Below, piece by piece: positions 11,101 to 32,132 of a stretch of DNA of 64,000 bases. The notes beneath the pieces are model-generated. The model was not told the origin of the DNA and searched no databases. It worked only from the letters and a program-made list of their open reading frames with translations. This stretch comes from an uncultured Eubacteriales bacterium (lineage in GTDB: Bacteria; Bacillota; Clostridia; Oscillospirales; Oscillospiraceae). Made by a program: the position numbers and the translations under genes. The stretch's first letter is position 1. Every line of letters starts with the position of its first letter. Location of the stretch: assembly GCA_900319635.1 (NCBI GenBank), contig ONPF01000004.1, positions 16,732 through 80,731 of the forward strand, read 5' to 3'.

Positions 11101-11101
11101 G

Positions 11102-14536: not shown

Positions 14537-14588
14537 CGGGGCAGGGGAAGAAAAGCGCGGGGATGGCGAAAATAAACCGGCGGGGCGA

Positions 14589-14617: not shown

Positions 14618-14670
14618 ATCCTGGGATAAAAGGGAAGGGTTCCCAGGGAAATGTACAGGGAGCGGAGACA

Positions 14671-17084: not shown

Positions 17085-17087
17085 GCC

Positions 17088-18858: not shown

Positions 18859-19183
18859 CGCAGGGGCGGATTCTCTCTTCGCTGTTCTCTGTCGCCCCCG
18901 TAGGGAGCGATCCCCAGATCGCTCCGCCAACCTGCGCCCGCGTCCGACAGGCGGGCGACCACAAGGGTCGCCCCTACGTCGTGAACGAAGGTTTCCCCGT
19001 AGGGGCGGCTATCAGCCGCCCGCCTGTTGGGCAAACGCCGGATCTGCGGCCGAGCAATGCTCGGCCCTACGGGAAAAACGGGCGTCGGCCCCTACGGGGG
19101 AATGCGGATTGCCATGCCAGTGTGCGCACTGGCTCGCAATGACAAACGGGGGACGATGTGAACAGGGAAGAGGTACGAATTAC
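18859..19183. repeat. Intergenic repeat island between inverted heptamer arrays
   Basis: No gene is visible. It contains several GTAGGGGCG-type palindromes (about 18897-18925, 18950-18977, 18998-19025, 19060-19100), and the CCAGTGTGCGCACTGG palindrome near 19109-19125. Confidence 0.7.
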
Positions 19184-19278: not shown

Positions 19279-20703
19279 TTACAGATTATAATACTTCTCA
19301 AACTCCGCCGGGTGGGGGATCTGGCTGAGCTCCAGGCACTCGGCCCGCTTGCGCTTGATGAAGCTCTGCAGCAGCTCCTCGGGGAAGACGCCCCCTGCGG
19401 TGAGATAGTCGTGATCCTGCTCCAGGGCGTCCAGCGCCTGATCCAGAGAGGTGGGCAGGTGGTGGAGCTTCCGCTTTTCCTCCTCGGGCAGGTGGAAGAG
19501 GTTCATGTCGTAGGGGCCCCAGCCCTTCTCGTGGGGGTCGATCTGCTTCTGGATGCCGTCCAGCCCGGCCATCAGAATGGCGGCGTAGCAGAAATAGGGG
19601 TTGCAGGTGGCGTCCGGGTTGCGAAGCTCGAAGCGGCGCAGCTTGGGGCTCTTGGCATAGGCAGGGATGCGGATGACGGCGCTGCGGTTGGAGGTGGCGT
19701 AGCCCACCGTCACCGGCGCCTCGAAGCCCGGCACCAGGCGCTTGAAGGAGTTGGTGGAGGGGTTGGTGATGGCGCAGAGGGAGGCGATGTGCTGCAGCAG
19801 GCCGCCCATGAACCAGTGGGCCTCCTTACTCAGATGGGAGTAACCGTTGTCGTCGGAGAAGACGGGCTCCCCGTCCTTCAAAAGCAGCATGTGCACGTGC
19901 ATGCCGCTGCCGGCCTCGCCGTAGACGGGCTTGGGCATCAGCGTGGCGCTGTAGCCGTACTTGCGGGCTACGTTGTGGATGATGTACTTGATCATCATGC
20001 TGCCGTCGGCCATCTTGGACATCTGCATCAGCAGCGGCTCGATCTCGTACTGGCCGGCGCCGCCCACCTCCGGATGGTGATACTTCACGGGGATGCCCGC
20101 CTTTTCGATCTCCAGGCACATTTCGCTGCGGCACTCGTAGCTGGGATCCAGGGGCTTTGCCACGTGATAATTCTTCTGGAAGGGCACCACGCAGCCGCTG
20201 CCCTCGGTGTCGCTGTTCCAATAGGCCTGCCTGGTGTCCAGATGCACGCCGATGGCGTTGTTGGTCACCTTCCAGCCGATCTCGTCGAAGAGATAGAACT
20301 CAAACTCCGGCAGGATCAGCATGGTGTCGGCGATGCCGGTGTCCTTCATATACTGCTCCGCCGCGGCGACGATGTTGCGGGGGTACTGCTTGAGCGGGCG
20401 GTTGTTGGGGTAGTCGATGATCATGGCGTTGCCGATCATCGAGAGGGTCTTGATGCTGCTGAAGGGTTCGATCATGGCGCTGTCCAGATCGGGGATGTAG
20501 ACCATGTCGCTCTTCTCCACCACGGCGTAGCCATAGTTGGAGGCGTCGAAGCCGATGCCGTTGATCATCGTGTCCTCGTTGAAGTGGGCGGCGGGGATGG
20601 TCACATGGCGGAACTGACCGTCGATGTCCACCACCTTGAAGTCCACCATCTGGATGTCCTGCTCCTTGATCATCTGCATGATCTCTTGCGCGGTTCTTGC
20701 CAT
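19279..20703 (-). CDS. glnA: Glutamine synthetase, type I
   Basis: A 474-residue GS-I protein that makes glutamine from glutamate, ammonia and ATP. Catalytic landmarks are LPEFEFYLFD, QYEIEPLL, GSGMHVHMLLL, NPSTNSFKRL, SNRSAVIRIP and the glutamate-binding RFELRNPDATCNPY. The adenylylation-site region of proteobacterial enzymes is not conserved, as expected in Firmicutes. ATG 20703 follows GAGGAGAG; an upstream ATG (20715) is less well placed. It is monocistronic, with its own promoter (20767-20795) and terminator, and divergent from the GH31 gene. No GlnR or GlnK gene is adjacent. Confidence 0.96.
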   Translation of the reverse strand: MARTAQEIMQMIKEQDIQMVDFKVVDIDGQFRHVTIPAAHFNEDTMINGIGFDASNYGYAVVEKSDMVYIPDLDSAMIEPFSSIKTLSMIGNAMIIDYPNNRPLKQYPRNIVAAAEQYMKDTGIADTMLILPEFEFYLFDEIGWKVTNNAIGVHLDTRQAYWNSDTEGSGCVVPFQKNYHVAKPLDPSYECRSEMCLEIEKAGIPVKYHHPEVGGAGQYEIEPLLMQMSKMADGSMMIKYIIHNVARKYGYSATLMPKPVYGEAGSGMHVHMLLLKDGEPVFSDDNGYSHLSKEAHWFMGGLLQHIASLCAITNPSTNSFKRLVPGFEAPVTVGYATSNRSAVIRIPAYAKSPKLRRFELRNPDATCNPYFCYAAILMAGLDGIQKQIDPHEKGWGPYDMNLFHLPEEEKRKLHHLPTSLDQALDALEQDHDYLTAGGVFPEELLQSFIKRKRAECLELSQIPHPAEFEKYYNL

Positions 20704-20766
20704 AGCTCTCCTCACTTCTCTGCCTGAAAAGGCTTGTTATCATCCGGGTCATGAAACCCAAGGCAT

Positions 20767-20957: not shown

Positions 20958-22934
20958 ATGCTGCAATCGCAAGTTCGCGCCGGATCCTGGATGCTGGAGC
21001 AGGACAAGGTCCTGCTGGCCAGCCACACCGTCGACCGCCCCTTTGCCACCGCCGTGAAGCGGGAGAAGAGCTATCAGGAGAACCGGGGCACCTATAAGGA
21101 GACCGTGCGGGAGACTGCCCGCATCCCCCTGACCAAGGTGAAGCGGGAAGGGGAGGAGATCGTCTTCTCCGACGAGGGGCACAGCCTGCGCATGAAGGCG
21201 GAGAGCCGCCCCCGGGGCGTGGAGCTGTTCCTTACCGGCGAGGAGGGCTGGGCCTACGAGTTTTCCCTGCCCGCTATGGAGGACGAGTGCGTCTTCGGCG
21301 GCGGCGAGCAGTACCGCCAGGTGAACCTCCGGGGCGAGCGGGTGAAGAACTTCGTCTCTGAGCACATCAAGGCCACCACCATCCTGGAAAAGGCGCTGGT
21401 GCCCCGGGCGCTGTATCGGGAGAAGAAGGCAGCCAGCATCGGCACCTACGCCCCCATGCCCGTGTTCGTCACCGACTCCGGCCGCCTCATCCGCTTCGAT
21501 ACCGCCTCTGACGGCTGGGCGGACTTCGGCAAGGAGGAGTACCGCTTTCAGTACGACCGCTGCCCCGCCTCGCTGACCCTGCAGAAGGGCGGCAGCTTCC
21601 AGGAGCTCTCGGCCCTGCTCTCCGTCCAGATCCCCAACCGCCAGTATCTGCCCGACTGGTGCCTGGACGGCATGATCCTGGGCGCCCAGGGCGGCACCGA
21701 GGAGGTACTGCGCAAGACCTTCTCCCTGCTGGACGCGGGGGCGGAGATCTGCGGCGTCTGGAGCCAGGACTGGTCCGGCTGCAACAAGACCATGGCCGGC
21801 TACCAGGTCTGGTGGAACTGGGAGGCGGACGAGAAGCTCTATCCCGACATCCGCGGCATGATCCGCAAGCTCAACGAGCGGGGCGTCAAATTCCTGGCCT
21901 ACATCAACCCCTACCTGGTGCGGGACAGCCGCCTCTATACCTACTGCAAGGACAAGGGCTACCTTATCACCCGGCGGGACGGCAGCATCTACCACATCAA
22001 ATCCACCACCTTTGACGCCGGCATGCTGGATCTGACCAATCCCGAGGCCGTGCGCTACATCAAGGATCAGCTCATCAAGAAGAACATGCTGGAGCTGGGC
22101 GTCTCCGGCTGGATGGCGGACTTCGGGGAATACCTGCCGGTGGACTGCGTGCTCCATGACGGCGACCCCGCGGAGCTCCACAATCTCTGGCCGGTGCTCT
22201 GGGCCAAGGTCAACCGGGAGGCCATCGAGGAATACGGCGCCAAGGACGCCTTCTTCTTCTCCCGCTCCGGCTACACCGGCATCCAGACCTACGCCCCCAT
22301 CCTCTGGAACGGCGACCAGCACACCGACACCACCCGGGACTACGGCATGCCCTGCGTGATGCCCGCCAGCTTCTCCCTGGGCTTCTCCGGGGTGACCATG
22401 CTCCACTGCGACATCGGCGGCTTCTTCTCCTTCCTGCGTCTCAAGCGGGACGGGGAGCTGCTGACGCGCTGGATGGAGATGTGCACCTTCTCCCTTTTGA
22501 TGCGCAGCCACGAGTCCATCCGCCCCTCCGCCAACGCCCAGCCCTATGACGAGGACGTGCGGGACTACACCGTGCGCCTCACCAGGATCCACAAGGCCCT
22601 CAAGCCCTACATCGCCCGCTGCGTGTACCTGGCCTCCGAGGGGCTGCCCGCCATGCGCCCGGACTTCTGGGAGGAGATGGACGGGGAGGACAGCCGGGAT
22701 CCCTACGCCTATTTCTTCGGGGAGGAGATGTTCGTCTGCCCGGTGCTGAAGAAGGGCGCCGTGAAGCGCAAGGTGTATCTCCCCCGGGGCAAGTGGGTGC
22801 ATTTCTGGACGGGGAAGACCTACAAGGGCGGACGGAAGCACACCGTGCCCGCCCCGCTTGGCGAGACCCCCGTGTTCTACCGCAAGGACGGAAAATTCGC
22901 AAACCTCTTCCGGGAAGCGGCGGCGGAGCTATGA
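20958..22934 (+). CDS. GH31 glycoside hydrolase of the sulfoquinovosidase (YihQ) clade
   Basis: A 658-residue intracellular retaining alpha-glycosidase. It aligns from memory along its length with E. coli YihQ, including GGTE, SQDWSG, FLAYINPYL, the nucleophile in GWMADFGEYLP (Asp388), the acid/base in NGDQHTD (Asp453) and HCDIGGF. Sulfoquinovosidases release sulfoquinovose from plant sulfolipid glycosides. The five sulfonate-pocket positions read Gln244, Gln270, Gln283, Trp286, Phe489 against Q-Q-R-W-Y in E. coli, so the Arg and Tyr are replaced. The clade and the neighbouring sulfo-TK genes argue for sulfoquinovoside cleavage. The pocket changes leave room for another alpha-glycoside. It converges on the isomerase gene and shares a terminator with it. 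Confidence 0.8.
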   Translation: MLQSQVRAGSWMLEQDKVLLASHTVDRPFATAVKREKSYQENRGTYKETVRETARIPLTKVKREGEEIVFSDEGHSLRMKAESRPRGVELFLTGEEGWAYEFSLPAMEDECVFGGGEQYRQVNLRGERVKNFVSEHIKATTILEKALVPRALYREKKAASIGTYAPMPVFVTDSGRLIRFDTASDGWADFGKEEYRFQYDRCPASLTLQKGGSFQELSALLSVQIPNRQYLPDWCLDGMILGAQGGTEEVLRKTFSLLDAGAEICGVWSQDWSGCNKTMAGYQVWWNWEADEKLYPDIRGMIRKLNERGVKFLAYINPYLVRDSRLYTYCKDKGYLITRRDGSIYHIKSTTFDAGMLDLTNPEAVRYIKDQLIKKNMLELGVSGWMADFGEYLPVDCVLHDGDPAELHNLWPVLWAKVNREAIEEYGAKDAFFFSRSGYTGIQTYAPILWNGDQHTDTTRDYGMPCVMPASFSLGFSGVTMLHCDIGGFFSFLRLKRDGELLTRWMEMCTFSLLMRSHESIRPSANAQPYDEDVRDYTVRLTRIHKALKPYIARCVYLASEGLPAMRPDFWEEMDGEDSRDPYAYFFGEEMFVCPVLKKGAVKRKVYLPRGKWVHFWTGKTYKGGRKHTVPAPLGETPVFYRKDGKFANLFREAAAEL

Positions 22935-22962
22935 GTTTTGAGTTTTGAGTTTTGAGAATTGA
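22935..22962. repeat. Heptamer array, four 7-nt units
   Basis: GTTTTGA three times and GAATTGA, starting at the base after the GH31 stop codon, followed by GGAGATGA. The same heptamer lies inverted at 23204-23231. Confidence 0.88.
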
Positions 22963-23154
22963 GGAGATGAGGGAACGGGGTCACCCCGTAGGGGCGAGCT
23001 GTGCTCGCCCGCAGACCTTCGCCCGTGTCCGACAAGCGGGCGGCCTTGCCTCCCCTGCAAGGGGTCTTGGGTGTGGCACGGCAAGCGCAGCGCGGCCGTG
23101 ACGGAGGGGTTTCCCCCGTGGCTTTGCGTTTTGCGTTCATCGTATATATAACAA

Positions 23155-23202
23155 AAAAGTCCAAGAGGTCAGCTGCAAAGGCTGACCTCTTGGACTTTAT
23201 CT
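23155..23202. terminator. Bidirectional intrinsic terminator
   Basis: A long perfect stem (about 23155-23173 with 23181-23199), with A-run and T-run ends, between the convergent GH31 and isomerase genes. Confidence 0.88.
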
Positions 23203-23203
23203 C

Positions 23204-23231
23204 TCAAAACTCAAAACTGAATACTCAAAAC
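23204..23231. repeat. Heptamer array, four 7-nt units (reverse orientation)
   Basis: TCAAAAC, TCAAAAC, TGAATAC, TCAAAAC. On the minus strand it reads GTTTTGA, GTATTCA, GTTTTGA, GTTTTGA, then GAGAT, starting at the base after the isomerase stop codon. Confidence 0.88.
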
Positions 23232-24572
23232 TCAGTACTTGTACACCTCAAAGCCCAGCATGCCGGCCAGAGCCTCCAGGGCCTTGACGTGGTTGCCCTT
23301 CATCACCACGAAGTGGGGCTCGAAGCCGTCCAGCACGCTCTTCTCCACGATCTCCCGGCTGTCGCTGTCCGTGCAGATCACGAGAGAGGTGCCGATGAAC
23401 TGCCGGGGCTTGTCCAGCGCCTCGCCCGTAGCCAGGAAGAAGCGGAAGCTGCCGTCGGGTTCCCGGCCGATGCGGAAGATGGTGGCCTCCGGGAAGGCCT
23501 CGCAGCCGAAGTTCATAGCCGGGCCGATCTTCCGGTTGGGGTGCACGCCAATCTCGGCGCCGGTGTCCTTCCGGGCCAGGGAGCAGGCGGCGGCGCCGCA
23601 GTGCCAGAAGGTGATGGTGTTCTCCCACTCGTCCAGGCTCACCGGGTCGCCGAAGAACACCGGCTCGCCCGAAAGCTGCATGCCCACCCACATGGAGAGG
23701 GCACCGTACACGTCCGCCTCGCAGGCGGCAGCCACGCCGTCGTCATTGAGCAGGCTCAGCACCGTGCACACCGGGGTGCCGTAGGCGGTGAAGAAGTCCG
23801 GCCAGCAGCGGCTGGCCAGGGCACCGATGCCGTTTGCCTGCACATAGTCGCTGTAGGCCTTGTAGAGCCGGGCGTGATCCAGGCGGTTGCGCTCCGGGGT
23901 CTTGTCCAGCCCGCAGGTGGCACAGGCGGTTTTCTCCAGAAAGGCGGCGCAGTCCTCGTCACTGTAGCTCTTAGCCTTGTCGATGAGCTCCCGGGCCTCG
24001 ATGGCCTCCAGCTCCACGCCGAAGACGCTCATGAGCTCCCCGTCCAGCGCCCGGCCGAAGCCGAAGCCCTGGGGCGTGTGGCCGATGGCGGCCAGCTTCA
24101 GACCGCGCATGGCGTGCCTGACCCTGGCGGCGGCCACCGCGGCCTTTACCGCCTCCTCCAGATCCAGCTCCTCGGGGGAGCCGAACACGTAAGAGAAGGG
24201 GCGATCGTCAAAGGCGCGGAGGGTGTTGGCGGCGGAATAGGCCCCGGTGAGGGAGTTGAGGCGCAGCCGCCCCCCGTCGATCACGGGCTCCCGCAGCGTC
24301 CAGAGCAGCACCGGGCAGTCAAAGCGGCGCAGCACCTCGGCCATGTAGGCGGCGTTGGCGAAGGTCAGATTCTGGAACACGATGAGATCCGGCTGCACAG
24401 AATCCAGCCAGGCGCGGAGCTTGTCGATGCTGAGCAGCATCTCCTCCGGGCAGAGGAAGGCGGGGTCGATCTCCCGCAGCAGCTCTTTGCTCTTGTCAAA
24501 GGCCTCCTGCGCGCTCTCCAGATGGAAGGTGGGCACGCCCACCGGGACGTAAACAGGCGTAAATGCTTTCAT
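23232..24572 (-). CDS. sqvD: Sulfoquinovose isomerase-like protein (L-fucose isomerase fold)
   Basis: A 446-residue protein of the L-fucose/L-arabinose isomerase-like superfamily (COG2407), the family of SqvD, which turns sulfoquinovose into 6-deoxy-6-sulfofructose. Features include LIVFQNLTFANAAYMAEVL, LLWTLREP, IGHTPQGF, CEADVYGALSMWVGMQL near the metal site, and FWHCGAAACSLA. ATG 24572 follows GAGGTG; the frame is open 14 codons further but without a ribosome site. It is divergent from the transketolase genes, with 149 nt between starts and back-to-back promoters, and convergent with the GH31 gene. The specific substrate is inferred from context; the fold assignment is firm. Confidence 0.75.
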   Translation of the reverse strand: MKAFTPVYVPVGVPTFHLESAQEAFDKSKELLREIDPAFLCPEEMLLSIDKLRAWLDSVQPDLIVFQNLTFANAAYMAEVLRRFDCPVLLWTLREPVIDGGRLRLNSLTGAYSAANTLRAFDDRPFSYVFGSPEELDLEEAVKAAVAAARVRHAMRGLKLAAIGHTPQGFGFGRALDGELMSVFGVELEAIEARELIDKAKSYSDEDCAAFLEKTACATCGLDKTPERNRLDHARLYKAYSDYVQANGIGALASRCWPDFFTAYGTPVCTVLSLLNDDGVAAACEADVYGALSMWVGMQLSGEPVFFGDPVSLDEWENTITFWHCGAAACSLARKDTGAEIGVHPNRKIGPAMNFGCEAFPEATIFRIGREPDGSFRFFLATGEALDKPRQFIGTSLVICTDSDSREIVEKSVLDGFEPHFVVMKGNHVKALEALAGMLGFEVYKY

Positions 24573-24609
24573 AAGGCACCTCACTTGCGTATATTTTGTC
24601 TTCCCGCAC

Positions 24610-24639
24610 ATCATAGTACCAAAGCCCGCCTGCTGTCAA
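24610..24639 (-). promoter_or_regulatory. Promoter of the sqvD-like gene
   Basis: On the minus strand TTGACA (24639-24634), 18 nt, TATGAT (24615-24610). Its -35 is 11 nt from the -35 of the divergent promoter. Confidence 0.7.
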
Positions 24640-24650
24640 GGAGATTGCGG

Positions 24651-24679
24651 TTGACAAAGTCGCCGCGGGGGCGTACAAT
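24651..24679 (+). promoter_or_regulatory. Promoter of the sulfo-TK operon
   Basis: TTGACA (24651-24656), 17 nt, TACAAT (24674-24679), near-consensus. The two divergent -35 boxes form an inverted repeat TGTCAA(11 nt)TTGACA, a natural place for a shared regulator. Confidence 0.8.
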
Positions 24680-24721
24680 TTTACTGTTATGGCCTATAAA
24701 ACTCAAAGGAGGGACTTGAAC

Positions 24722-25549
24722 TTGAGTCAAGATCTCAAAGAAATCTGCAAGGATATTCGCTGCGACATCATGACCACCATCGGTCATCTGGGCGTGGGGC
24801 ATATCGGCGGCTGCCTGTCTCTGGCGGAGCTGCTGACGGTGCTGTACTTCAAGGAAATGCACATCGATCCCCAGAACCCCAAGATGCCCGGCCGGGATCG
24901 GCTGGTCTGCTCCAAGGGGCACGCCGGCCCCGCCATCTACGCCGCCCTGGCCAATCGAGGCTACTTTGACAAGGCGGAGCTGCTGACCCTGAATCAGAGC
25001 GGCACCCACCTGCCCAGCCACTGCGACATGAACCTCACCACCGGCATCGACATGACCACCGGCTCCCTGGGCCAGGGCTTCAGCTGCGCCGTGGGCGTGG
25101 CGCTGGGCTCCAAGCTGGAGGACGACGGCGCGACGATCTATGCCATCGTGGGCGACGGCGAGAGCCAGGAGGGTCAGATCTGGGAGGCGGCCATGTTCGC
25201 CGCCGCCAAGAAGCTGGATAACCTCATCGCCTTTACCGACTACAACAAGCTCCAGATCGACGGCCCGGTCTCCGAGGTCAACGACGTCGCCCCCCTGGCG
25301 GAGAAGTGGGCCGCCTTCGGCTGGAACGTGATCGACGTGGAGGACGGCAACGACCTGGAGCAGGTGGAGGCCGCCATCGAGCACGCGAAGCTTGGCCGCG
25401 GCGGGGAGAAGCCCACCATGGTCATCCTGAACACCAAGAAGGGCTGCGGCGTCAAGTGGATCGAGGATCTGGGCGCCGGCAACCACAACACCAATGTCAC
25501 CGAGGAGCAGGCCCAGGCCGCCATTGCGGAAATTCGGGGGAGGGACTAA
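24722..25549 (+). CDS. sqwG: Transketolase, N-terminal (TPP-binding) subunit, sulfo-TK type
   Basis: A 275-residue subunit with the thiamine-diphosphate motif GDGESQEGQIWEA...YNKLQIDG and SKGHAGPAIYAAL, TTGSLGQGFSCAVG. With the next gene it forms a two-subunit transketolase. In the sulfo-TK pathway SqwGH removes two-carbon units first from sulfofructose and then from sulfoerythrulose. I chose TTG 24722 because AAAGGAGGG (24705-24713) lies 8 nt upstream. ATG 24689 is in frame but only 9 nt beyond the -10 box, so it would be nearly leaderless. The C-terminal subunit starts 3 nt after this stop. A generic pentose-phosphate role is possible but fits the neighbours less well. Confidence 0.78.
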   Translation: MSQDLKEICKDIRCDIMTTIGHLGVGHIGGCLSLAELLTVLYFKEMHIDPQNPKMPGRDRLVCSKGHAGPAIYAALANRGYFDKAELLTLNQSGTHLPSHCDMNLTTGIDMTTGSLGQGFSCAVGVALGSKLEDDGATIYAIVGDGESQEGQIWEAAMFAAAKKLDNLIAFTDYNKLQIDGPVSEVNDVAPLAEKWAAFGWNVIDVEDGNDLEQVEAAIEHAKLGRGGEKPTMVILNTKKGCGVKWIEDLGAGNHNTNVTEEQAQAAIAEIRGRD

Positions 25550-25552
25550 GCT

Positions 25553-26476
25553 ATGGAAATGAGAGCTGTTTACGCTGAATGCCTGGCCCAGATGATGGAG
25601 CAGGACAAGCACGTCGTCGTGCTGGACGCCGACCTCTCCAAGGCCAGCGGCACCCGCAAGATGTACGATCGCTTCCCCAGGCAGATGTTTGACTGCGGCG
25701 TGGCCGAGCAGAACATGGCCTCCATCGCCGCCGGCCTCTCCAGCTACGGCTTTAAGCCCTGGATCGAGAGCTTTACCCCCTTCGCCACCCGGCGGATCTG
25801 CGACCAGATCGCCATCTCCATCTCCTATGCCAAGCAGAACGTGAAGATCGTGGGCACCGACCCCGGCATCTCCGCCGAGCTCAACGGCGGCACCCACATG
25901 AGCATGGAGGACATCGGCGTCCTGCGCTCCATCCCCGGCATCGTGATCTTTGAGCCGGTGGACGAAGTGCAGCTGCGCGCCGCCATGCCCGTGCTGAACG
26001 CCTATGAGGGGCCGGTGTATGTGCGCCTCTTCCGCAAGGTGCAGCCCGTGATCTTCCCCGAGGACTACAAGTTCGACCTCTTCAAGGCAGATACGCTCCG
26101 CGAGGGCAGGGATCTCACGATCTTCGTCTCCGGCATGGTGACCAAGGACTGCCTGGACGCGGCCGAGCTTCTGCGCGAGCAGGGCATCGACGCGGAGATC
26201 ATCAATGTCCACACCATCAAGCCCGTGGATCGGGAGACGGTGATCGCCTCCGCCCGGAAGACCGGCGCGGTGCTGACGGTGGAGAACCACAATGTCATCG
26301 GCGGCCTGCACTCCGCCATTCTGGAGACCCTGGCCCAGGAGAAGATCCCCGTCTGCGCTGTGGGTGTGCCCGACCGCTTCGGCGAGGTGGGCAAGATCCC
26401 CTATCTGCGTGAGGTCATGGGCCTCACGGTAGAGAACATCGTGGAGACGGCGAAGAAGGCCGTCAGCCTGAAGTAA
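25553..26476 (+). CDS. sqwH: Transketolase, C-terminal (pyrimidine-binding) subunit, sulfo-TK type
   Basis: A 307-residue partner subunit. It carries the pyrimidine-binding domain (DADLSKASGTRKMYDRFP, FDCGVAEQNMASIAAGLS with the catalytic Glu in GVAEQN, FTPFATRR) and the C-terminal transketolase domain (MVTKDCLDAAELL, NVHTIKPVDRETV, TVENHNVIGGLHSA). It completes the thiamine enzyme with the preceding gene. Length is usual for split clostridial transketolases. Its stop is abutted by a heptamer array, then a repeat island of 374 nt, before the RpiB-like gene. Confidence 0.78.
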   Translation: MEMRAVYAECLAQMMEQDKHVVVLDADLSKASGTRKMYDRFPRQMFDCGVAEQNMASIAAGLSSYGFKPWIESFTPFATRRICDQIAISISYAKQNVKIVGTDPGISAELNGGTHMSMEDIGVLRSIPGIVIFEPVDEVQLRAAMPVLNAYEGPVYVRLFRKVQPVIFPEDYKFDLFKADTLREGRDLTIFVSGMVTKDCLDAAELLREQGIDAEIINVHTIKPVDRETVIASARKTGAVLTVENHNVIGGLHSAILETLAQEKIPVCAVGVPDRFGEVGKIPYLREVMGLTVENIVETAKKAVSLK

Positions 26477-26504
26477 TGCGGAATTCGGAATGCGGAATTC
26501 GGAA
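26477..26504. repeat. Heptamer array, four 7-nt units
   Basis: TGCGGAA, TTCGGAA, TGCGGAA, TTCGGAA beginning at the base after the stop codon, followed by an inverted segment TTCCGCATTCC (26515-26525) that could pair with it. Confidence 0.85.
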
Positions 26505-26620
26505 TTGCCTCCGGTTCCGCATTCCTTTTGCGCCTTGCACCGTAGGGACGGCTATCAGCCGCCCGCTTAAGCTTCCTCGGGGAGGGAGCCTATATGGAGG
26601 AGTTCCATTGATCCCACAGC

Positions 26621-26845
26621 TCCCTCAGTCAGCCGCCTTCCGTGAGACGGCGTCTGCCAGCTCCCTCGGGGAGGGAGCCTATATTGAAAGGAAAACCCCT
26701 CAGTCATCCGTCTTCCGTGAGACGACGGATGACAGCTCCCCTTACAGGGGAGCCTAAGATGAAAGGAGAACCCCTCAGTCATCCGTCTTCCGTGAGACGA
26801 CGGATGCCAGCTCCCCTTACAGGGGAGCCAAAAAAGAAAGGAGAT
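26621..26845. repeat. 75-bp tandem triplicate upstream of the RpiB-like gene
   Basis: Three consecutive units with a period of exactly 75 nt (26621-26695, 26696-26770, 26771-26845). Each has a CCTCAGTCA start, a CATCCGTC..GACGGATG hairpin (diverged in unit 1), an AGCTCCC..GGGAGCC palindrome and an AAAGGA-type end. Units 2 and 3 are nearly identical; unit 1 is more diverged. The end of unit 3 supplies the AAAGGAG ribosome site of the next gene. A partial palindrome piece lies at about 26569-26590. The preceding 26527-26568 carries a GTAGGGACGG..CCGCCCGC palindrome. No gene is seen in this space. Confidence 0.85.
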
Positions 26846-26850
26846 TGTAT

Positions 26851-27327
26851 ATGAAAATTGCGATCGGCAGCGATAAATCCGGCTTCTCCGCCAAGGAAGC
26901 CATCAAAGTGTATCTCACCGAGTCCGGCGCGGACTTTGACGATCTGGGCACCGTGGACTTAAACCAGGTGCACCCCTACTATCAGGTGGCCTCTGAGGTG
27001 GCTCCCCTGGTGCAGAACGGTACTTACGACCGGGCTATCCTCATCTGCGGCACCGGCGCCGGCATGTGCGTGGTGTCCAACAAGTTCAAGGGCGTCTATG
27101 CCGTGGCCTGCGAGGGCGTGTACTCCGCCAAGATGGCCCGCACCATCAACAACGCCAACATCCTCTGCATGGGCGGCTGGATCGTCGGCCCCGAGATGGC
27201 CGTGGAGATGACCAAGACCTTCCTCGCCACCGACTGGTGCCAGGATCTGGAGGATTGGCGCGCCGCCAATATGCACAAGTTCGCCCTGCAGGTTTCCGCC
27301 ATCGAGGACAAGATCTATGACAAGTGA
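26851..27327 (+). CDS. sqwI: RpiB/LacAB family isomerase (sulfoerythrose isomerase-like)
   Basis: A 158-residue protein of the RpiB/LacA/LacB family: KIAIGSDKSGFSAKEAIK, the active-site segment ILICGTGAGMCVVSNKFKGVYAVAC and TINNANILCMGGWIVG. RpiB enzymes interconvert aldoses and ketoses. In the sulfo-TK pathway SqwI converts 4-deoxy-4-sulfoerythrose to the erythrulose form. RpiB normally has DHAG near the N-terminus and here SDKSG stands at that place, consistent with a different substrate. AAAGGAG from the tandem repeat gives the ribosome site. The 3' end overlaps the dehydrogenase gene by 11 nt, tying it to the pathway. Confidence 0.78.
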   Translation: MKIAIGSDKSGFSAKEAIKVYLTESGADFDDLGTVDLNQVHPYYQVASEVAPLVQNGTYDRAILICGTGAGMCVVSNKFKGVYAVACEGVYSAKMARTINNANILCMGGWIVGPEMAVEMTKTFLATDWCQDLEDWRAANMHKFALQVSAIEDKIYDK

Positions 27328-28417
27328 GTTCATCTATGCCCAGCCGGTGAAGATCTTCTTCGGCCAGGGCGAGTTTCAGAAGCTTGGCGCGGTGCTGGAC
27401 GAGCTGGGCGTCACCCGGGCGGTGCTCTGCTGCGGGCGGCACTTTGCCCCCCAGGCGTCTCTGCTGATGGAGAAGGAGCCGCGCATCGCGGCCGTTTTCA
27501 CTGAGGTGGAGCAGAATCCCCAGCTCTCCGGCATCACGGAGACTACCCGCCTCTGCCGCGTCCACGCGGCCGACGGCGTCATCGGCATCGGCGGCGGCAG
27601 CTCCCTGGACACCGCCAAGTTTGCCGCGGCCGTTGCGCCGAACCCCGGCGAGCCCATCGACTACTACGAGGGCAAGCGCCCGCTGAACGCCCAAAACCGG
27701 CTCCCCGTGGTGGCCGTGCCCACCACCGCCGGCACCGGCAGCGAGGTGACCCAGGTCTCCGTGGTAAGCCACGGAACCGAGAAAAAGACCATCAATAACC
27801 CGGCCTTCATGCCCGCGGCGGCCATCGTGGATCCGCTGCTCTCCGCCTCTGTGCCGCCCCGCACCACCATGAACACGGGCCTGGACGCCATGGCCCACGC
27901 CCTGGAGGGCTACTGGAGCCGGAACCACCAGCCCATCCCCGACCTCATGGCCATCGAGGCCGTGCGCCTGATCCTGGGGAATCTGGAGCGGGCATACCGG
28001 GACGGCGGCGACCTGGAGGCCCGGAGCAGCATGGCCCTGGCCGCGCTGCTGGGCGGGCTGAGCTTTGCCCTGCCCAAGACCGCCGCCAGTCACGCCTGCA
28101 GCTATCCGCTTTCCGAGGACTATCACCTGCCCCACGGGGAGGCCTGCGCCTTCACCCTGGACAGCCTGGTGAAGATCAACGCCGACGAGCGGCTGGAGCA
28201 TCTGTGCCATGCCGTTGGCCTCAAGGATACCGACGAGCTTGCCGCCCGCATCCGGGCGCTGAAGGCGCTGGGCGGCCTGCGCAGCAGACTGTCCGACCTG
28301 GGGGACGTGGATCTTGCGAAGCTCTGCCGGGACTGCGCCGCCCACCCGCTGATGAAGAATAACCCCGTGAGCCTGGACGAGGAGGCGCTGCGGGAGATGT
28401 TTGAAGCCCTGGCATGA
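27317..28417 (+). CDS. sqwF: Iron-containing alcohol dehydrogenase (sulfoacetaldehyde reductase-like)
   Basis: A 366-residue group III (Fe-ADH) dehydrogenase: nucleotide-binding GIGGGSSLDTAK, VPTTAGTGSEVTQ, and metal ligands in TGLDAMAHALEGYWS and LPHGEACAF. In the sulfo-TK route the last step is NADH-dependent reduction of sulfoacetaldehyde to isethionate by this family. It overlaps the RpiB-like gene by 11 nt and the transporter gene by 4 nt, so all three are co-translated. Other aldehydes cannot be excluded from sequence alone. Confidence 0.78.
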   Translation: MTSEFIYAQPVKIFFGQGEFQKLGAVLDELGVTRAVLCCGRHFAPQASLLMEKEPRIAAVFTEVEQNPQLSGITETTRLCRVHAADGVIGIGGGSSLDTAKFAAAVAPNPGEPIDYYEGKRPLNAQNRLPVVAVPTTAGTGSEVTQVSVVSHGTEKKTINNPAFMPAAAIVDPLLSASVPPRTTMNTGLDAMAHALEGYWSRNHQPIPDLMAIEAVRLILGNLERAYRDGGDLEARSSMALAALLGGLSFALPKTAASHACSYPLSEDYHLPHGEACAFTLDSLVKINADERLEHLCHAVGLKDTDELAARIRALKALGGLRSRLSDLGDVDLAKLCRDCAAHPLMKNNPVSLDEEALREMFEALA

Positions 28418-29325
28418 AAAGCACGTTGAAAACCGCCGGCATGTTCGGCGGGATGATCCTGTCCTGGTCGATCTATTACGCCGCCAGCAAGGTGCTGGTG
28501 GGGGAGACCGGATCGCCGCTGCTGGCGGGCTTTCTGCTGCGTACGGCGGCGCTGGTGTTCCTCACGGTGCAGCTGCTGCTGGACGGCAGCTTTACCCGGC
28601 TCTTCCACCAGGGCAAGGCGGTGAAGATCCTGCTGATGATCGGCGTCTTCGGCTTCCTGCTGGATCTTTTTGCCAATCTGGGCTACGCCGGGGGCAGCCT
28701 CTCCACCGGCACGGCGCTTTTGAAGACCGACGTGCTGATGGTGAATCTGGTCACCGTGATCCTGTATAAAAAGAAGCTCTACGCCTCGGACTGGCTGGGC
28801 ACCTTCATCATGCTGCTGGGGGTGCTGCTGGTGCTGGGCGTGGACTTCGGCAGCATGTCCCTCAACGGCTACGACCTGTTTTTCCTGCTCTCCGCCGCCT
28901 GCGTCACCGCCAACGCCTTCATCATCAAGCGCGCCCAGGACAAGTACCACGAGGACGCGGACATGATCTCCTATTACAATAACGGCGTGGTGCTGCTGCT
29001 CTTCGCCGCCTCCGCCGGGGTGACGGGGGATCTGGGCGGCTTCGACTGGGGGAGTCTGCGCACGCTCTGGTGGCTGGTCGCCCTGGGCGGTCTTGCCCAG
29101 ACGGGGATCTATTTCTTCTACTACCGCAATCTCAAGACCCACGAGGTCTGGGAGGTGAAGCTGGCGCTGCTGCTGATGCCGGTGCTGAGCTGCTTTATCG
29201 GCGTCTTCTTCCTGGCGGAAGAGCTGACGGCCAAAAAGCTCCTTGGTATCGGGATCGTGCTGGCCGGCGCGGCGCTGCTCTTGCTGCGGAGCAAGATGCA
29301 TCCCCGGGAGGAAAGGAAGGAATGA
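28414..29325 (+). CDS. DMT/EamA family transporter (candidate isethionate exporter)
   Basis: A 303-residue membrane protein with about ten helices in two EamA-like halves, few charges in the helices, and a basic C-terminal tail. Members of the drug/metabolite transporter superfamily move small metabolites. Its start overlaps the dehydrogenase stop by 4 nt, so I infer that it exports isethionate or imports the substrate of the pathway. It is the last gene of the operon. A T-rich stretch follows, but no clear hairpin terminator. Confidence 0.7.
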   Translation: MKSTLKTAGMFGGMILSWSIYYAASKVLVGETGSPLLAGFLLRTAALVFLTVQLLLDGSFTRLFHQGKAVKILLMIGVFGFLLDLFANLGYAGGSLSTGTALLKTDVLMVNLVTVILYKKKLYASDWLGTFIMLLGVLLVLGVDFGSMSLNGYDLFFLLSAACVTANAFIIKRAQDKYHEDADMISYYNNGVVLLLFAASAGVTGDLGGFDWGSLRTLWWLVALGGLAQTGIYFFYYRNLKTHEVWEVKLALLLMPVLSCFIGVFFLAEELTAKKLLGIGIVLAGAALLLLRSKMHPREERKE

Positions 29326-29360
29326 AGGAATGGTTCTTCTTCCTTCCTTTCTTTCTGTCC

Positions 29361-29389
29361 TTGCATAATCCGGAATTGTATTGTATACT
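29361..29389 (+). promoter_or_regulatory. Promoter of the FAD/Fe-S oxidoreductase-hypA operon
   Basis: TTGCAT (29361-29366), 17 nt, TATACT (29384-29389). Leader about 55 nt with GAGGGAGAG before ATG 29451. Confidence 0.7.
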
Positions 29390-29450
29390 GCCTATAAGCG
29401 CACATTTTTGGTTCGCTATATGTAAAAATATTGAGGGAGAGAATCATATC

Positions 29451-32132
29451 ATGGCTGAACTGAGACCGAAAATCGTCAAGCTCTGTCATATCGTCGGCGG
29501 CCTCACCGGCGTTGTGAACAAGATCGACGAGAACGCCCCCGAGTATTATTCCCTGGCCAGCATCGTCACCGACGATGAGGCCGATGTTGCCATCGCCGCC
29601 GGTCTGCGCAAGGAGCGCACCGTGGGCTACCTGGCCAAGAAGGTCGGCAAGCCCGTGGAAGAGGTGGAGAAGCTGGCCAAGCATCTGGCCTGGATCGGCG
29701 TGTTCCGCTGCACCTACGACGAGAAGCTGGGAGAAGACGTGTACTTCATGCAGATCTTCGCCCCCGGCATCATGGAGATGCTGGTGAACAACCAGGAGCT
29801 GCTGAACACCCATCCGGAAGTGGGCAAGGCCTTCGAGGAGTATACCCGCATCCGCATGGAGACCATGTCCCCCCTGATCCCCAACGGCTACGGCCTGATG
29901 CGCGTTGTCCCCGTGGAGAGCGCCATCAAGGATCTGCCCGGCGTCAGCCCCTATGAGAAGCTCAGCTACTATCTGGACAAGTATGACACCTTCTCCGTGT
30001 CTCCCTGCTCCTGCCGCGCCTCCCGCACCTCCATCGGCGACGGCTGCGGCCACCTGGCCGAGGAAATGTGCATCCAGATGGGCAAGGGCGCGGAGCACTA
30101 CATCCGCTCCGGCCGTGCCCGCAGGATCACCAAGGAAGAGGCACTGGAGATCATCAAGCGCGCCGAGGACAACGGCCTCATGCACGACATCCCCAACATC
30201 GAAGAGGTGGGCGACAGCGCCGCCATCTGCAACTGCTGCTCCTGCGCCTGCTTCGGTCTGCGCGTGGGTCTGATGTTCGGCGCCCGGGACGCCATCCGCT
30301 CCAACTTCCAGGCGGAGGTGGACGAGGCCAAGTGCGTGGCCTGCGCCCAGTGCGTGGAGGTCTGCCCCGCCAACGCCCTGAAGCTGGGCCAGAAGCTCTG
30401 CACCACGGTGAACATCGCCCCCGCCAAGTACACCAAGCTCTCCGAGACGCTGCTGGCCAAGAACGCCTGGAATCCCGACTACCGGGAGAACCGGGAGGAC
30501 GTGGTTCCCACCGGCACCGCCCCCTGCAAGGTGGCCTGCCCCGCCCACGTTCCCATCCAGGGCTACCTGAAGCTGGCCGCCCAGGGCCGCTACAAAGAGG
30601 CTCTGGAGCTCATCAAGACCGAGAACCCCCTGCCCGCCGTCTGCGGCCGCATCTGCAACAAGCGCTGCGAGGCCGAATGCACCCGCGGCGGGGTGGACGA
30701 GGCTGTCGCCATCGACGAGGTCAAGCGCTTCATTGCCGACCACGACCTGCAGAGCGAGCACCGCACCGTGCCCAAGATGCTCAACCAGACCGGCAAGCCC
30801 TTCACCGAGAAGATCGCCATCATCGGCGCCGGCCCCGCGGGTCTGAGCTGCGCCTACTACCTGGCCCTCAAGGGCTACCCCGTCACCGTCTTTGACCGCA
30901 ACCCGGTCCCCGGCGGCATGCTCACCATGGGCATCCCCAACTTCCGCTTGGAGAAAGACACCCTGAACGCCGAGATCGACATCATCCGCGAGATGGGCGT
31001 GGAGTTCAAGTGCGGCGTGGAGGTCGGCAAGGACGTCACCATCCAGGAGCTGCGCGAGCAGGGCTACAAGGGCTTCTATCTGGCCATCGGCGCCCAGAAG
31101 AGCGCCAGGATCGGCGTCCCCGGCGAGGAGCTCACGGGCGTGCTGGGCGGCGTGGACTTCCTGCGGGAAGTGAACCTGGGCCATGAGGTCAAGGTCGGCA
31201 AGAACGTGGCCGTCGTGGGCGCGGGCAACGTGGCCATGGACGTGTGCCGCACGGCCGTGCGTCTCGGCGCCGAGAATACCTATATTATCTACCGCCGTTC
31301 CGAGGCGGAGATGCCTGCTGATCCCGAGGAAGTGGGCGAGGCCAAGGAAGAGGGCGTGCAGTTCCGCTTCCTCTGCGCCCCCGTGGAGATCCTGGGCGAG
31401 GACGGCAAGGTCAAGGCGCTGAAGGTGGAGCGCATGACCCTGGGCGAGCCGGACGAGAAGGGCCGCCGCAAGCCCGTGGGCACCGGCGAGTTCGAGGAGA
31501 TCGACGTTGACACTGTCATCGGCGCCATCGGCCAGCGGGTGGACTTCGGCAAGCTGGATCTGGGCGAGATGAAGCTGGACAAGAAGGGCCTGGCCGAGGC
31601 CGACGCCCTCACCTACCAGACCGCGCAGCCCGACATCTTTGTGGGCGGCGACTGCTACACCGGCCCCAGCTTTGCCATCAACGCCATTGCCGCCGGCAAG
31701 GAGGCCGCCATCTCCCTGCACCGCTATGTCCATCCCGGCCAGACCCTCACCATGGGCCGTGACCGCCGCATTTACCGCGCGCTGGACAAGGAGCATGTGC
31801 AGCTCACCGTGGGCAGCTACGACAGGGAGCACCGCCAGGAGCGGGGCTACAACGCCGAGAAGGCCAAGACCTTTGCCGACGCCCGCGTGACCTTCACCGA
31901 GGAGCAGGTGCGCAAGGAGACCGCCCGCTGCCTGGGCTGCGGCGCCACCAAGGTGGATCCGTACCTCTGCATCGGCTGCGGCATCTGCACCACTCGCTGC
32001 AAGTTCGACGCCATCCATCTGAAGAAGGTGCGCGATTGGCACGCCGGTTCCTTTGAGACCATGCCCATCAAGGCCGCGGCCGGGCTTGTCAAGAAGGCGG
32101 GCAACATCGTCAAGCACGCTGTGGTGAAGTAA
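29451..32132 (+). CDS. Large FAD-dependent oxidoreductase with multiple Fe-S clusters (GltB/NfnB-like)
   Basis: An 893-residue protein in three parts. The N-terminal part (1-340) has cysteine motifs SPCSCRAS, ICNCCSCACF and a ferredoxin-type CVACAQCVEVCP. The middle (about 350-790) is the glutamate-synthase small-subunit-like FAD/NAD(P) core, with IIGAGPAGLSCAYYLA, PGGMLTMGIP, VVGAGNVAMDVC and a final GGDCYTGPSFAINAIAAGKEAA. The C-terminal part (about 825-865) has CLGCGATKV and CIGCGICTTRCKF. Such proteins move electrons between NAD(P)H and ferredoxin or another partner. The partner is not evident. The stop overlaps the hypA start (TAATG). Confidence 0.85.
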   Translation: MAELRPKIVKLCHIVGGLTGVVNKIDENAPEYYSLASIVTDDEADVAIAAGLRKERTVGYLAKKVGKPVEEVEKLAKHLAWIGVFRCTYDEKLGEDVYFMQIFAPGIMEMLVNNQELLNTHPEVGKAFEEYTRIRMETMSPLIPNGYGLMRVVPVESAIKDLPGVSPYEKLSYYLDKYDTFSVSPCSCRASRTSIGDGCGHLAEEMCIQMGKGAEHYIRSGRARRITKEEALEIIKRAEDNGLMHDIPNIEEVGDSAAICNCCSCACFGLRVGLMFGARDAIRSNFQAEVDEAKCVACAQCVEVCPANALKLGQKLCTTVNIAPAKYTKLSETLLAKNAWNPDYRENREDVVPTGTAPCKVACPAHVPIQGYLKLAAQGRYKEALELIKTENPLPAVCGRICNKRCEAECTRGGVDEAVAIDEVKRFIADHDLQSEHRTVPKMLNQTGKPFTEKIAIIGAGPAGLSCAYYLALKGYPVTVFDRNPVPGGMLTMGIPNFRLEKDTLNAEIDIIREMGVEFKCGVEVGKDVTIQELREQGYKGFYLAIGAQKSARIGVPGEELTGVLGGVDFLREVNLGHEVKVGKNVAVVGAGNVAMDVCRTAVRLGAENTYIIYRRSEAEMPADPEEVGEAKEEGVQFRFLCAPVEILGEDGKVKALKVERMTLGEPDEKGRRKPVGTGEFEEIDVDTVIGAIGQRVDFGKLDLGEMKLDKKGLAEADALTYQTAQPDIFVGGDCYTGPSFAINAIAAGKEAAISLHRYVHPGQTLTMGRDRRIYRALDKEHVQLTVGSYDREHRQERGYNAEKAKTFADARVTFTEEQVRKETARCLGCGATKVDPYLCIGCGICTTRCKFDAIHLKKVRDWHAGSFETMPIKAAAGLVKKAGNIVKHAVVK

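What the first reader, a model, noticed from the sequence alone, without database searches (positions are those of the whole stretch)
20958..29325. Complete sulfoglycolytic transketolase pathway ending in isethionate
Seen: a GH31 enzyme of the YihQ clade, an SqvD-type isomerase, split transketolase, RpiB-like isomerase, Fe-type alcohol dehydrogenase and DMT transporter in one locus. Known: this set, apart from the transporter type, matches the sulfo-TK pathway described in a Clostridium. Inference: the organism takes plant sulfoquinovose, keeps the C2 units as sugar phosphates and excretes isethionate, feeding sulfite- and H2S-forming gut bacteria.
Basis: partly seen in the sequence, partly recalled or inferred. 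Interest (0 to 1): 0.8.

Follow-up and report, generated by a model that had tools for sequence, protein, structure and literature searches.

The report
Rumen sulfosugar-to-isethionate gene cluster
This is a compact set of genes with which a bacterium, probably from a ruminant's gut, is predicted to eat the sulfur sugar of green leaves and excrete isethionate; the pathway is already known, but its first enzyme has an unusual sugar-binding pocket worth testing.

Summary
Window 20958-29325 carries a YihQ-clade GH31, a divergent SqvD isomerase, split transketolase SqwGH, RpiB-like SqwI, Fe-ADH SqwF and a DMT transporter. The sulfo-transketolase (sulfo-TK) reading held for the four core enzymes: SqvD's only NCBIfam match is the sulfoquinovose-isomerase model (below its cut-off); SqwH has the published R-A-D-R residues, not R-S-H-R; SqwI lost the phosphate-binding and ring-opening histidines of ribose-phosphate isomerases but kept the isomerisation residues; SqwF's nearest solved structure is a proven sulfoacetaldehyde reductase, with matching catalytic and substrate residues. 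sqvD and sqwG are head to head in 76 of 76 named relatives holding both, and the core genes co-occur across 102 genomes of the genus. It is a new member of a known pathway, reported for rumen bacteria in 2026. The locus lacks an importer and the usual DUF4867 protein; an importer candidate lies on another contig. And the GH31 belongs to a divergent clade in which the arginine and tyrosine that (by recall) hold the sulfonate in known sulfoquinovosidases are Gln and Phe in 31 of 31 members compared. It probably remains a sulfoquinovosidase; its substrate is the open question.

The parts
20958..22934 (+). GH31 of the YihQ (sulfoquinovosidase) subfamily, divergent clade 'GH31a': catalytic D388/D453 kept, W286 kept, but Q283 and F489 at E. 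coli YihQ R301 and Y508
   Evidence: NCBIfam PRK10426 613 bits over cut-off 553; six best PDB sequences are sulfoquinovosidases; residues; AF2/Foldseek top 23 chains are SQases
23156..23198 (-). terminator-like 18-bp hairpin with T tail just downstream of sqvD
   Evidence: 8 terminator-like sites found in the 9 kb, 6.7 expected from shuffles
23232..24572 (-). SqvD/SftI-type sulfoquinovose isomerase (446 aa from ATG 24572; ORF open from 24614)
   Evidence: NCBIfam NF048012 386 bits, 2.6e-115, below cut-off 700; Pfam Fucose_iso_C 24.9 bits, below cut-off 29.3; 60-61% to isomerases of two other families of the order, one of them in a sulfo-TAL-like cluster; fold = AraA/FucI type
24610..24679 (.). 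divergent region with two near-consensus sigma-70-type promoters, TTGACA-17-TACAAT (+) and TTGACA-18-TATGAT (-)
   Evidence: (11 of 12 matches each), sequence
24722..25549 (+). SqwG, N-terminal (TPP-binding) subunit of split 6-deoxy-6-sulfofructose transketolase (TTG start 24722; ORF open from ATG 24689)
   Evidence: PF00456; start from sequence
25553..26476 (+). SqwH, C-terminal subunit; R4, A31, D103, R161 = the published SF-transketolase residues
   Evidence: PF02779+PF02780; residues against PMC11659671; tree
26622..26822 (.). three tandem copies of a 75-bp-spaced palindromic intergenic repeat between sqwH and sqwI (incidental)
26851..27327 (+). SqwI, RpiB-family 4-deoxy-4-sulfoerythrose isomerase; D8, C66, T68 kept, RpiB His10 and His99 (E. 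coli numbers) replaced by K9 and I99
   Evidence: PF02502; residues
27317..28417 (+). SqwF, metal-dependent alcohol dehydrogenase, predicted sulfoacetaldehyde reductase
   Evidence: best PDB hit 6jko = BkTauF, 257 bits; residues
28414..29325 (+). DMT/EamA transporter, candidate isethionate exporter
   Evidence: PF00892; directly downstream of sqwF in 53 of the 54 loci (of 80) that have it

Best explanation
The locus encodes the reductive (isethionate-forming) sulfo-TK pathway of a bacterium whose close relatives are gut Oscillospiraceae of ruminants. Proposed order: the GH31 releases sulfoquinovose (SQ) from an imported SQ glycoside. SqvD isomerises SQ to 6-deoxy-6-sulfofructose. SqwGH moves a C2 unit to glyceraldehyde-3-phosphate, giving xylulose-5-phosphate and 4-deoxy-4-sulfoerythrose. 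SqwI isomerises this to sulfoerythrulose, SqwGH repeats the transfer, and the remaining sulfoacetaldehyde is reduced by SqwF to isethionate, which the DMT protein probably exports. Shown here: gene content, conserved layout, co-occurrence and discriminating residues of SqwH, SqwI and SqwF. Inferred from published work on homologues: the individual reactions. Pure inference: exporter role, use of the off-locus importer, and cross-feeding. A further inference: SqwI needs no ring-opening histidine because a sugar with sulfonate in place of the C4 hydroxyl cannot close a furanose ring.
For: SqvD: only the SQ-isomerase model hits in NCBIfam. SqwH: R-A-D-R with the same spacing as Faecalicatena R9/A36/D108/R166, while two transketolases elsewhere in the same genome (34 and 37% to SqwH) have R-S-H-R. 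SqwI: D-K-C-T-I/V-N in 80 of 80 SqwI-type rows (window copies and L137 included) against D-H-C-T-H-N in the 11 of 11 RpiB proteins of the genus that I picked; roles of those residues from PMC4783025 (passages). SqwF: closest solved structure by far is the sulfoacetaldehyde reductase BkTauF, with metal ligands and the substrate residues Phe, Thr and Phe/Tyr kept in 64 of 66 rows. Layout. Co-occurrence in 102 genus genomes: SqwH 68, SqwI 63, SqvD 68, all three 61. Importer candidate 76% identical to the cluster-linked one. The same pathway was transcribed in rumen microcosms that formed isethionate (PMC13219744).
Against: SqvD is below the curated cut-off (386 against 700), although an SqvD of a sulfo-TAL-like cluster is too (391). 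Three loci with a neighbouring SqvD have K-S-D-R in SqwH (L083, L093, L104), so R-A-D-R is not absolute, and other transketolase-like copies in the window's genome have K-C-D-R and S-G-D-R, so D alone is not diagnostic. Five genus genomes carry SqwH at 71-83% without SqvD or SqwI (G303, G319, G321, G357, G366); the tree nests them inside the cluster clade, so they look derived, but their role is unknown. Seven of 80 named loci lack SqwF and DMT, DMT alone, or all sqw genes near SqvD without being cut there. SqwI-like residues also occur in a different TK cluster with a transaldolase-family protein (L137). The GH31 lacks two sulfonate contacts. Importer, regulator and DUF4867 were not found in the window. 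No culture or enzyme data exist for this organism here.
Confidence: 0.88

Rival explanations
1. The catabolic core is sulfo-TK, but the GH31 in this locus is not a sulfoquinovosidase: it cleaves another alpha-glycoside (for example a different thylakoid-lipid head group or an ordinary alpha-glucoside), and the organism lives on free SQ released by others.
For: E. coli R301 and Y508 (sulfonate contacts, recalled from Speciale 2016) are Q and F in 31 of 31 members of this clade compared, while 32 of 32 canonical rows, E. coli YihQ included, keep R and Y. Bits to the six solved SQase sequences are 401-415 for the window protein against 632-731 for one canonical paralogue, L047. In two near relatives (G338, G353) it lies near glnA on a different contig from the sqw core. 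No canonical paralogue was found in the window's genome.
Against: GH31a is found with SqvD in 29 of 30 genus genomes that have it. In 23 of 28 named loci with GH31a the GPH importer is its neighbour. W304 and both catalytic Asp are kept. The sister sequence L112 (R301Q, Y508 kept) sits in a sulfo-TAL-like cluster. The nearest folds are all SQases.
Confidence: 0.25
2. The cluster degrades a different sulfonated sugar (for example sulfofucose or another 6-sulfo-hexose) through the same C2-transfer chemistry.
For: The altered GH31 pocket and the below-cut-off SqvD score.
Against: SqvD is 60-61% identical to isomerases of two other families, one in a sulfo-TAL-like cluster; canonical YihQ-type GH31b stands beside the same core in other genomes.
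Confidence: 0.07
3. Ordinary pentose or tetrose-phosphate salvage: a housekeeping split transketolase, RpiB and alcohol dehydrogenase that happen to sit together.
For: Family-level hits are transketolase, RpiB and Fe-ADH; no other RpiB and no RpiA was found in this draft genome, so the RpiB-like protein could in principle be the housekeeping one.
Against: Discriminating residues; 57 of the 63 genus genomes with SqwI have two or more RpiB-family matches, the ordinary ones listed at 35-44%, so the missing copy is probably a draft gap (genome 92% complete); separate R-S-H-R transketolases are present.
Confidence: 0.03
4. The end product is sulfoacetate (oxidative sulfo-TK variant) or the isethionate is desulfonated by the same cell.
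For: The oxidative variant exists in other anaerobes (PMC12890257 section 3.4).
Against: A reductase-type SqwF with BkTauF residues is in the operon and no CoA-acylating dehydrogenase or CoA ligase is among the seven cluster proteins scanned. A genome-wide search for SqwD, SqwKL or IslA was not made.
Confidence: 0.04

Closest known systems
Sulfo-TK pathway of Clostridium sp. MSTE9 (SqvD, SqwGH, SqwI, SqwF, SqwE; PMC12890257 section 3.4 read, PMC9594981 passages; the founding paper was not seen)
   Same: Same set of core enzymes and predicted product isethionate.
   Different: The MSTE9 proteins could not be fetched, so identity was not measured; PMC12890257 calls its exporter a sulfite/sulfonate transporter (SqwE), here it is a DMT protein; no DUF4867 found in this window.
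Rumen Ca. Limivicinus, Caproiciproducens and Neosphaerochaeta sulfo-TK clusters (PMC13219744; abstract, sections 14-16 and passages read)
   Same: Same habitat class and pathway; the paper reports it in 35.5% of 313 Ca. Limivicinus genomes, with transcripts and isethionate formed in microcosms.
   Different: The paper treats YihQ as one family with phylogenetically distinct clades; a search of its main text found no mention of the active site.
Faecalicatena bifurcated sulfo-TK/TAL pathway (PMC11659671; abstract, section 3.3 part 1, section 3.4 and passages read)
   Same: Same SqwH residues and spacing; a figure legend also abbreviates a DMT transporter.
   Different: No transaldolase-family protein was found in the window's genome, so no bifurcation is predicted.
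GH31 sulfoquinovosidases (E. coli YihQ, A. tumefaciens SQase, E. rectale SftG)
   Same: Fold, catalytic Asp pair, W304; all 23 top structural matches are SQases.
   Different: R301 to Q and Y508 to F; the clade is 35-41% identical to E. coli YihQ against 48-52% for the canonical rumen paralogue.
BkTauF sulfoacetaldehyde reductase (PDB 6JKO; PMC6616044, passages read)
   Same: Metal ligands and mutated substrate residues kept.
   Different: Q196 to H and F265 to Y, both reported as natural variants of BkTauF homologues in that paper.

Membership tests
sulfo-TK pathway | SQ isomerase (SqvD/SftI) present (criterion stated in PMC13372026, passage seen) | tested here: met
   only NCBIfam hit is NF048012, 386 bits, below the 700 cut-off, as are four other SqvDs at 382-424; AraA/FucI-type fold
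sulfo-TK pathway | SF transketolase SqwGH with R-A-F-D-R instead of R-S-F-H-R | tested here: met
   R4, A31, D103, R161 with published spacing; 83 of 96 aligned rows share R-A-D-R; the F was not located
[quoted passage not shown]
   80 of 80 SqwI-type rows against 11 of 11 RpiB rows separate at two of six positions; the 80 include one row (L137) from a different cluster; identity bimodal in the genus
sulfo-TK pathway, isethionate branch | sulfoacetaldehyde reductase SqwF | tested here: met
   BkTauF best hit and residues
sulfo-TK pathway | isethionate detected in culture | not testable with these tools
   no organism or metabolite data
sulfo-TK / sulfo-TAL gene clusters | DUF4867 protein (SqvB/SftX), present in the majority of clusters according to PMC9594981 | tested here: not met
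   no hit in the window with a rumen DUF4867 query; rest of the genome not searched; not part of the published minimal criteria
GH31 sulfoquinovosidase | YihQ subfamily by sequence and fold | tested here: met
   613 bits over cut-off 553; top 23 Foldseek chains are SQases, TM 0.90-0.92, next group about 0.7
GH31 sulfoquinovosidase | catalytic Asp nucleophile and acid/base (E. coli D405, D472) | tested here: met
   D388, D453
GH31 sulfoquinovosidase | sulfonate-contact residues R301, W304, Y508 (roles recalled from Speciale 2016, not seen; [quoted passage not shown]
   Q283, W286, F489: one of three kept
BkTauF-type sulfoacetaldehyde reductase | D192, Q/H196, H261, H275, F252, T257, F/Y265 (PMC6616044) | tested here: met
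   window D190, H194, H259, H273, F250, T255, Y263

The most novel reading that the evidence does not exclude
The window's GH31 represents a new class of sulfoquinovosidase ('GH31a'), common in ruminant-gut sulfo-TK bacteria, that recognises the sulfonate in a different way: the arginine and tyrosine present in the solved SQases of E. coli, E. rectale and A. tumefaciens are replaced by Gln and Phe in every member compared, with other clade-specific changes such as an invariant arginine at window 120 (Ser137 in E. coli YihQ) that may take over. It usually travels with a GPH importer, while the canonical paralogue often travels with an ABC importer, which would suggest two SQ-glycoside uptake and cleavage modules feeding one pathway. 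It may be the 'long branch' to which PMC13219744 assigned 64% of 1220 (YIHQa) and 47.5% of 1548 (YIHQb) rumen yihQ variants; that link is a guess not tested here.
Probability: 0.5. Interest if true: 0.55.

Novelty: new member of a known kind. Interest (0 to 1): 0.4.

Why it matters
Isethionate from leaf sulfolipid is a substrate for sulfite- and H2S-forming gut bacteria, so which rumen bacteria make it, and from which glycosides, matters for sulfur and possibly methane balance in ruminants. The locus itself is an ordinary, well-conserved example. What it adds: (1) a residue-level test separating SqwI from RpiB that fits the chemistry of a sugar unable to form a ring, useful because a review notes that SqwI activity was hard to measure directly (PMC9594981); (2) a warning that surveys using yihQ as a marker for SQ release may be counting a clade whose pocket has changed at two key positions and for which I came across no activity measurement.

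Tried and rejected
Solitary sqwGH genes as proof that SqwGH is a housekeeping transketolase: rejected, since three carry R-A-D-R and two R-S-D-R, and the tree places all five inside the cluster clade (the two R-S-D-R rows pair with support 83/61, within a poorly resolved part). A dedicated ABC importer for SQ glycosides in this genome: the cluster-linked binding protein has no credible counterpart (best 3.4e-7, mostly short N-terminal stretches). A bifurcated TK/TAL pathway: no TAL family protein. SqvD by sequence in the PDB: no hit at E 0.01. AF2 of the GH31 to see whether R120 faces the pocket: the model is uncertain at residues 276-285 and 132-155, among others (pLDDT under 50), and no structure file was seen in the Python box, so nothing is claimed about distances. 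Literature on the GH31 residues: two searches returned nothing; two returned papers, of which I read passages or sections of PMC10755693, PMC11968277, PMC9061262, PMC8397734, PMC12330013 and PMC13219744 without finding them (R301 and W304 have no occurrence in PMC8397734 and PMC12330013; 'active site' has none in PMC8397734 and PMC13219744). One search for SqwI listed 17 papers, several off-topic; no residue analysis of SqwI in the passages I read. Abayakoon 2018 was asked for and is not held; Liu 2021 and Speciale 2016 were not asked for by id and did not appear in any listing. Comparison with MSTE9 or Caproiciproducens KNHs216 proteins was not possible: the single named-genome scan went to SqvD and kept only its 80 best of 511. 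One search aligned two unrelated proteins by mistake and is not used.
Full report
WHAT IS THERE. The window lies on contig C32 of a 2.16-Mb draft genome (52 contigs, 92% complete). Between a glutamine-synthetase-like gene (19279-20715, minus; named by my own reading) and a long open frame (29070-32132, not studied) it holds GH31 (20958-22934, +), SqvD (24572-23232, -), SqwG (24722-25549), SqwH (25553-26476), SqwI (26851-27327), SqwF (27317-28417) and a DMT protein (28414-29325). SqvD and the sqwGHIF-DMT operon diverge from a short region with two back-to-back near-consensus promoters, 11 of 12 matches each (6 promoter-like sites found in 9 kb against a mean of 1.5 in shuffles). I moved two start codons: SqvD to ATG 24572 (the upstream ATG at 24614 lies in the -10 box) and SqwG to TTG 24722 (Shine-Dalgarno-like 24705-24713; 275 aa, equal to the median of homologues).

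CONSERVATION. A scan of the named species genomes with an SqvD alignment gave 511 relatives. The 80 best, 73-85% identical, are assemblies of uncultured bacteria whose titles, where they name a host or gut part, name cattle, goat, sheep, yak, buffalo or roe deer. Of these 80 loci, 54 contain SqvD, SqwG, SqwH, SqwI, SqwF and DMT together. Of the other 26, 19 end within 2 kb on the sqw side; seven do not, and lack SqwF and DMT (L037, L038, L074), DMT alone (L066, L068) or all sqw genes (L078, L109) near SqvD. sqvD and sqwG are head to head in 76 of 76, G-H-I-F are in order in 57 of 57, and DMT directly follows sqwF in 53 of 54. Among the 40 loci of at least 20 kb, counts are SqwG 39, SqwH 39, SqwI 39, SqwF 38, DMT 36, ROK regulator 28, DUF4867 24, GPH importer 16, ABC binding protein 13. 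In 295 genomes of the order, besides the window's genome only G229 and G145 had a full-length SqvD (60%); the next best full-length hit was 27%. The nearest full relative, L034, is the same DNA as part of the same-genus genome G297 (probes), so the window's genus includes the assembly RUG11086 ('Ruminococcaceae bacterium').

CO-OCCURRENCE. In the 102 genomes of the window's genus, SqwH (at least 70% identical) occurs in 68, SqwI (at least 70%) in 63, SqvD (at least 60%) in 68, and all three in 61 (counted from typed lists; pairwise Fisher p 1.1e-13 to 1.6e-19, descriptive only because relatives are not independent; incomplete drafts and partial hits are included). Five genomes have SqwH without SqvD and SqwI (G303, G319, G321, G357, G366). 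In all five sqwG and sqwH stand without other sqw genes in the stretch fetched. Three keep R-A-D-R, two have R-S-D-R, and a 42-row tree nests them inside the cluster clade (long outgroup branches were flagged). They look like relics or re-used copies rather than the ancestor. Six genomes have SqvD without SqwH at 70% (G295, G344, G355, G391, G392, G393); G392 and G393 carry a divergent set.

TESTS OF EACH ENZYME. SqvD: the only NCBIfam hit is the SQ isomerase model (386 bits; cut-off 700); Pfam's fucose-isomerase domain is also hit, below its cut-off. Four other SqvDs, including L003 whose neighbours are a TalC-type transaldolase, an SLA-reductase-like protein, a DUF4867-like protein and a GH31 (the middle two by my reading), score 382-424, so the cut-off excludes all five tested. 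The model folds like L-arabinose and L-fucose isomerases (TM about 0.79 and 0.73). SqwH: Borusak et al. (PMC11659671, section 3.4 read) describe R-A-F-D-R replacing R-S-F-H-R. The window has R4, A31, D103, R161, with the same spacing. Of 96 aligned rows 83 have R-A-D-R, 3 K-S-D-R, 4 K-C-D-R, 2 R-S-D-R, 1 R-P-D-R, 1 S-G-D-R and 2 R-S-H-R; the last two, one K-C-D-R and the S-G-D-R row are other copies in the window's genome (rows include four copies of the window protein; the F was not located). SqwI: the window and all other SqwI-type rows (80 of 80, including three copies of the window protein, two rows of the divergent clusters L133/L134, and L137 from a different cluster) keep D8, C66, T68, N100 but have K9 and I99 (V99 once). 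Eleven ordinary RpiB proteins of the genus, picked by hand from the capped list, have His at both places and a C-terminal RHxRR stretch that the six printed SqwI-type rows lack. In RpiB these histidines and arginines bind phosphate or help to open the furanose ring, while Cys and Thr do the isomerisation (PMC4783025, passages read). A sugar with sulfonate at C4 cannot form that ring, so the pattern of loss fits the proposed substrate; this link is my inference, and a tetrose 4-phosphate would fit the loss of the ring-opening residue as well. SqwF: best solved relative 6jko, 257 bits, next 155. 6JKO is BkTauF, a sulfoacetaldehyde reductase whose T257A and F265A mutants are nearly dead and F252A retains about 28% activity (PMC6616044, passages read). 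The window has the equivalent F250, T255, Y263 and metal ligands D190, H194, H259, H273; 62 of 66 rows are identical at all seven and two more differ only by F for Y. The two that fail are 29-32% identical ADHs (L075 second copy, L111).

THE GH31. By family score, catalytic residues and fold it is a YihQ-type enzyme. But two groups occur beside the same core pathway. Canonical GH31b (48-52% to E. coli YihQ) has Q262, Q288, R301, W304, D405, D472, Y508 in 32 of 32 rows, E. coli included. The window clade (35-41% to E. coli YihQ, 63-84% to the window) has Q, Q, Q, W, D, D, F in 31 of 31, window included. A sister sequence in the sulfo-TAL-like cluster of G145 (L112) has Q at 301 but Y at 508, which suggests stepwise change. 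In a quick 34-row tree the clade, with L112 at its base, branches among the canonical sequences on a long stem (2.47 changes per column; long-branch warning). Other clade-specific invariants include R120 (S137 in E. coli), T350, T351 and H346. That R301, W304 and Y508 contact the sulfonate is recalled from Speciale et al. 2016 and is not from a call; searches show that the printed solved SQases (E. coli, E. rectale, A. tumefaciens) have R, W and Y there. Of 28 named loci with GH31a, 23 have the GPH importer next to it; of 30 with GH31b, 17 have the ABC binding protein and 2 the GPH importer, those two also having GH31a. In the genus, GH31a occurs in 30 genomes (29 with SqvD; the exception G357 has the solitary SqwGH), GH31b in 44 (all with SqvD), both in 12, and 7 SqvD genomes have neither, one of them (G361) with a 54% fragment. 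The window's genome has only GH31a plus an ordinary GH31 at 29%. I read this as a sulfoquinovosidase with altered recognition (about 0.7) rather than an enzyme for something else, but only an assay can tell.

WHAT IS MISSING FROM THE LOCUS. None of the importer, DUF4867 or ROK queries hits the window. A GPH importer 76% identical to the cluster-linked one is at G000:C20:466-1866. The ABC binding protein has no credible counterpart. No transaldolase-family protein, no RpiA and no second RpiB were found in this draft. DUF4867, the regulator, SqwD/SqwKL and IslA were not searched genome-wide.

KNOWN OR NEW. The pathway is known from Clostridium sp. MSTE9 (PMC12890257 section 3.4 read; PMC9594981 passages), Faecalicatena (PMC11659671, sections read) and, in 2026, rumen Ca. 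Limivicinus, Caproiciproducens and Neosphaerochaeta with transcripts and isethionate (PMC13219744, sections read). The published minimal set for calling sulfo-TK (SQ isomerase, SF transketolase, sulfoerythrose isomerase; PMC13372026, passage) is met. So this is a new member of a known kind. The GH31a pocket and the SqwI signature were not described in any passage I read, but the library lacks most subscription papers, so absence from print is not claimed.

Noticed in passing
L137 (G296:C15:90000-105000), 4234-8786: A different cluster in the same genus: RpiB-like (43% to SqwI, with K9/I99), SqwGH-like (54/43%), a 446-aa TAL_FSA-family protein and a TauE exporter, near ABC-transporter-like proteins and a LacI-like regulator (my reading), with no SqvD hit in the stretch. 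It may be a related route for another sulfonated or non-cyclising sugar.
   Followed up: partly
L128, L129, L130, L131, L132: Solitary sqwGH pairs (67-85% to the window) with no other sulfo-TK gene in the stretch fetched; two have R-S-D-R, half-way to the ordinary motif.
   Followed up: partly
L133 and L134/L135 (G392, G393): A second, divergent sulfo-TK type in the same genus (SqwI 51%, SqwG 53-56%, SqwH 48-50%, SqwF 40-41%) with order I-G-H-F.
   Followed up: partly
L111 (G229:C17:64000-83500), about 1200-18500: An SqvD (60%) with a canonical-type GH31 and, further on, a large protein and partner that read like a glycyl-radical enzyme and its activase beside a 32% Fe-ADH: possibly another sulfonate pathway. 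Named by my reading only.
   Followed up: no
window 26622-26822: Three tandem palindromic repeats at 75-bp spacing between sqwH and sqwI; a related 32-nt stretch occurs at 18992-19023 and 26535-26566. Looks like a dispersed intergenic repeat.
   Followed up: no
window 22926-23239: TGAGTTTTGAG-type simple repeats in inverted orientation flank the region between the convergent GH31 and sqvD genes.
   Followed up: no
L171 (G338:C42), L172 (G353:C50), L173 (G297:C2): GH31a lies near the glutamine-synthetase-like gene on a different contig from the sqw core in G338 and G353, but beside the core in the window and G297, suggesting that the core cassette or its flank has moved.
   Followed up: partly
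L140 (G000:C35:7062-8902) and L050, L056, L073: A further split transketolase type with K-C-D-R, 41-43% to SqwH, of unknown substrate, in the window's genome and near some sulfo-TK loci.
   Followed up: no
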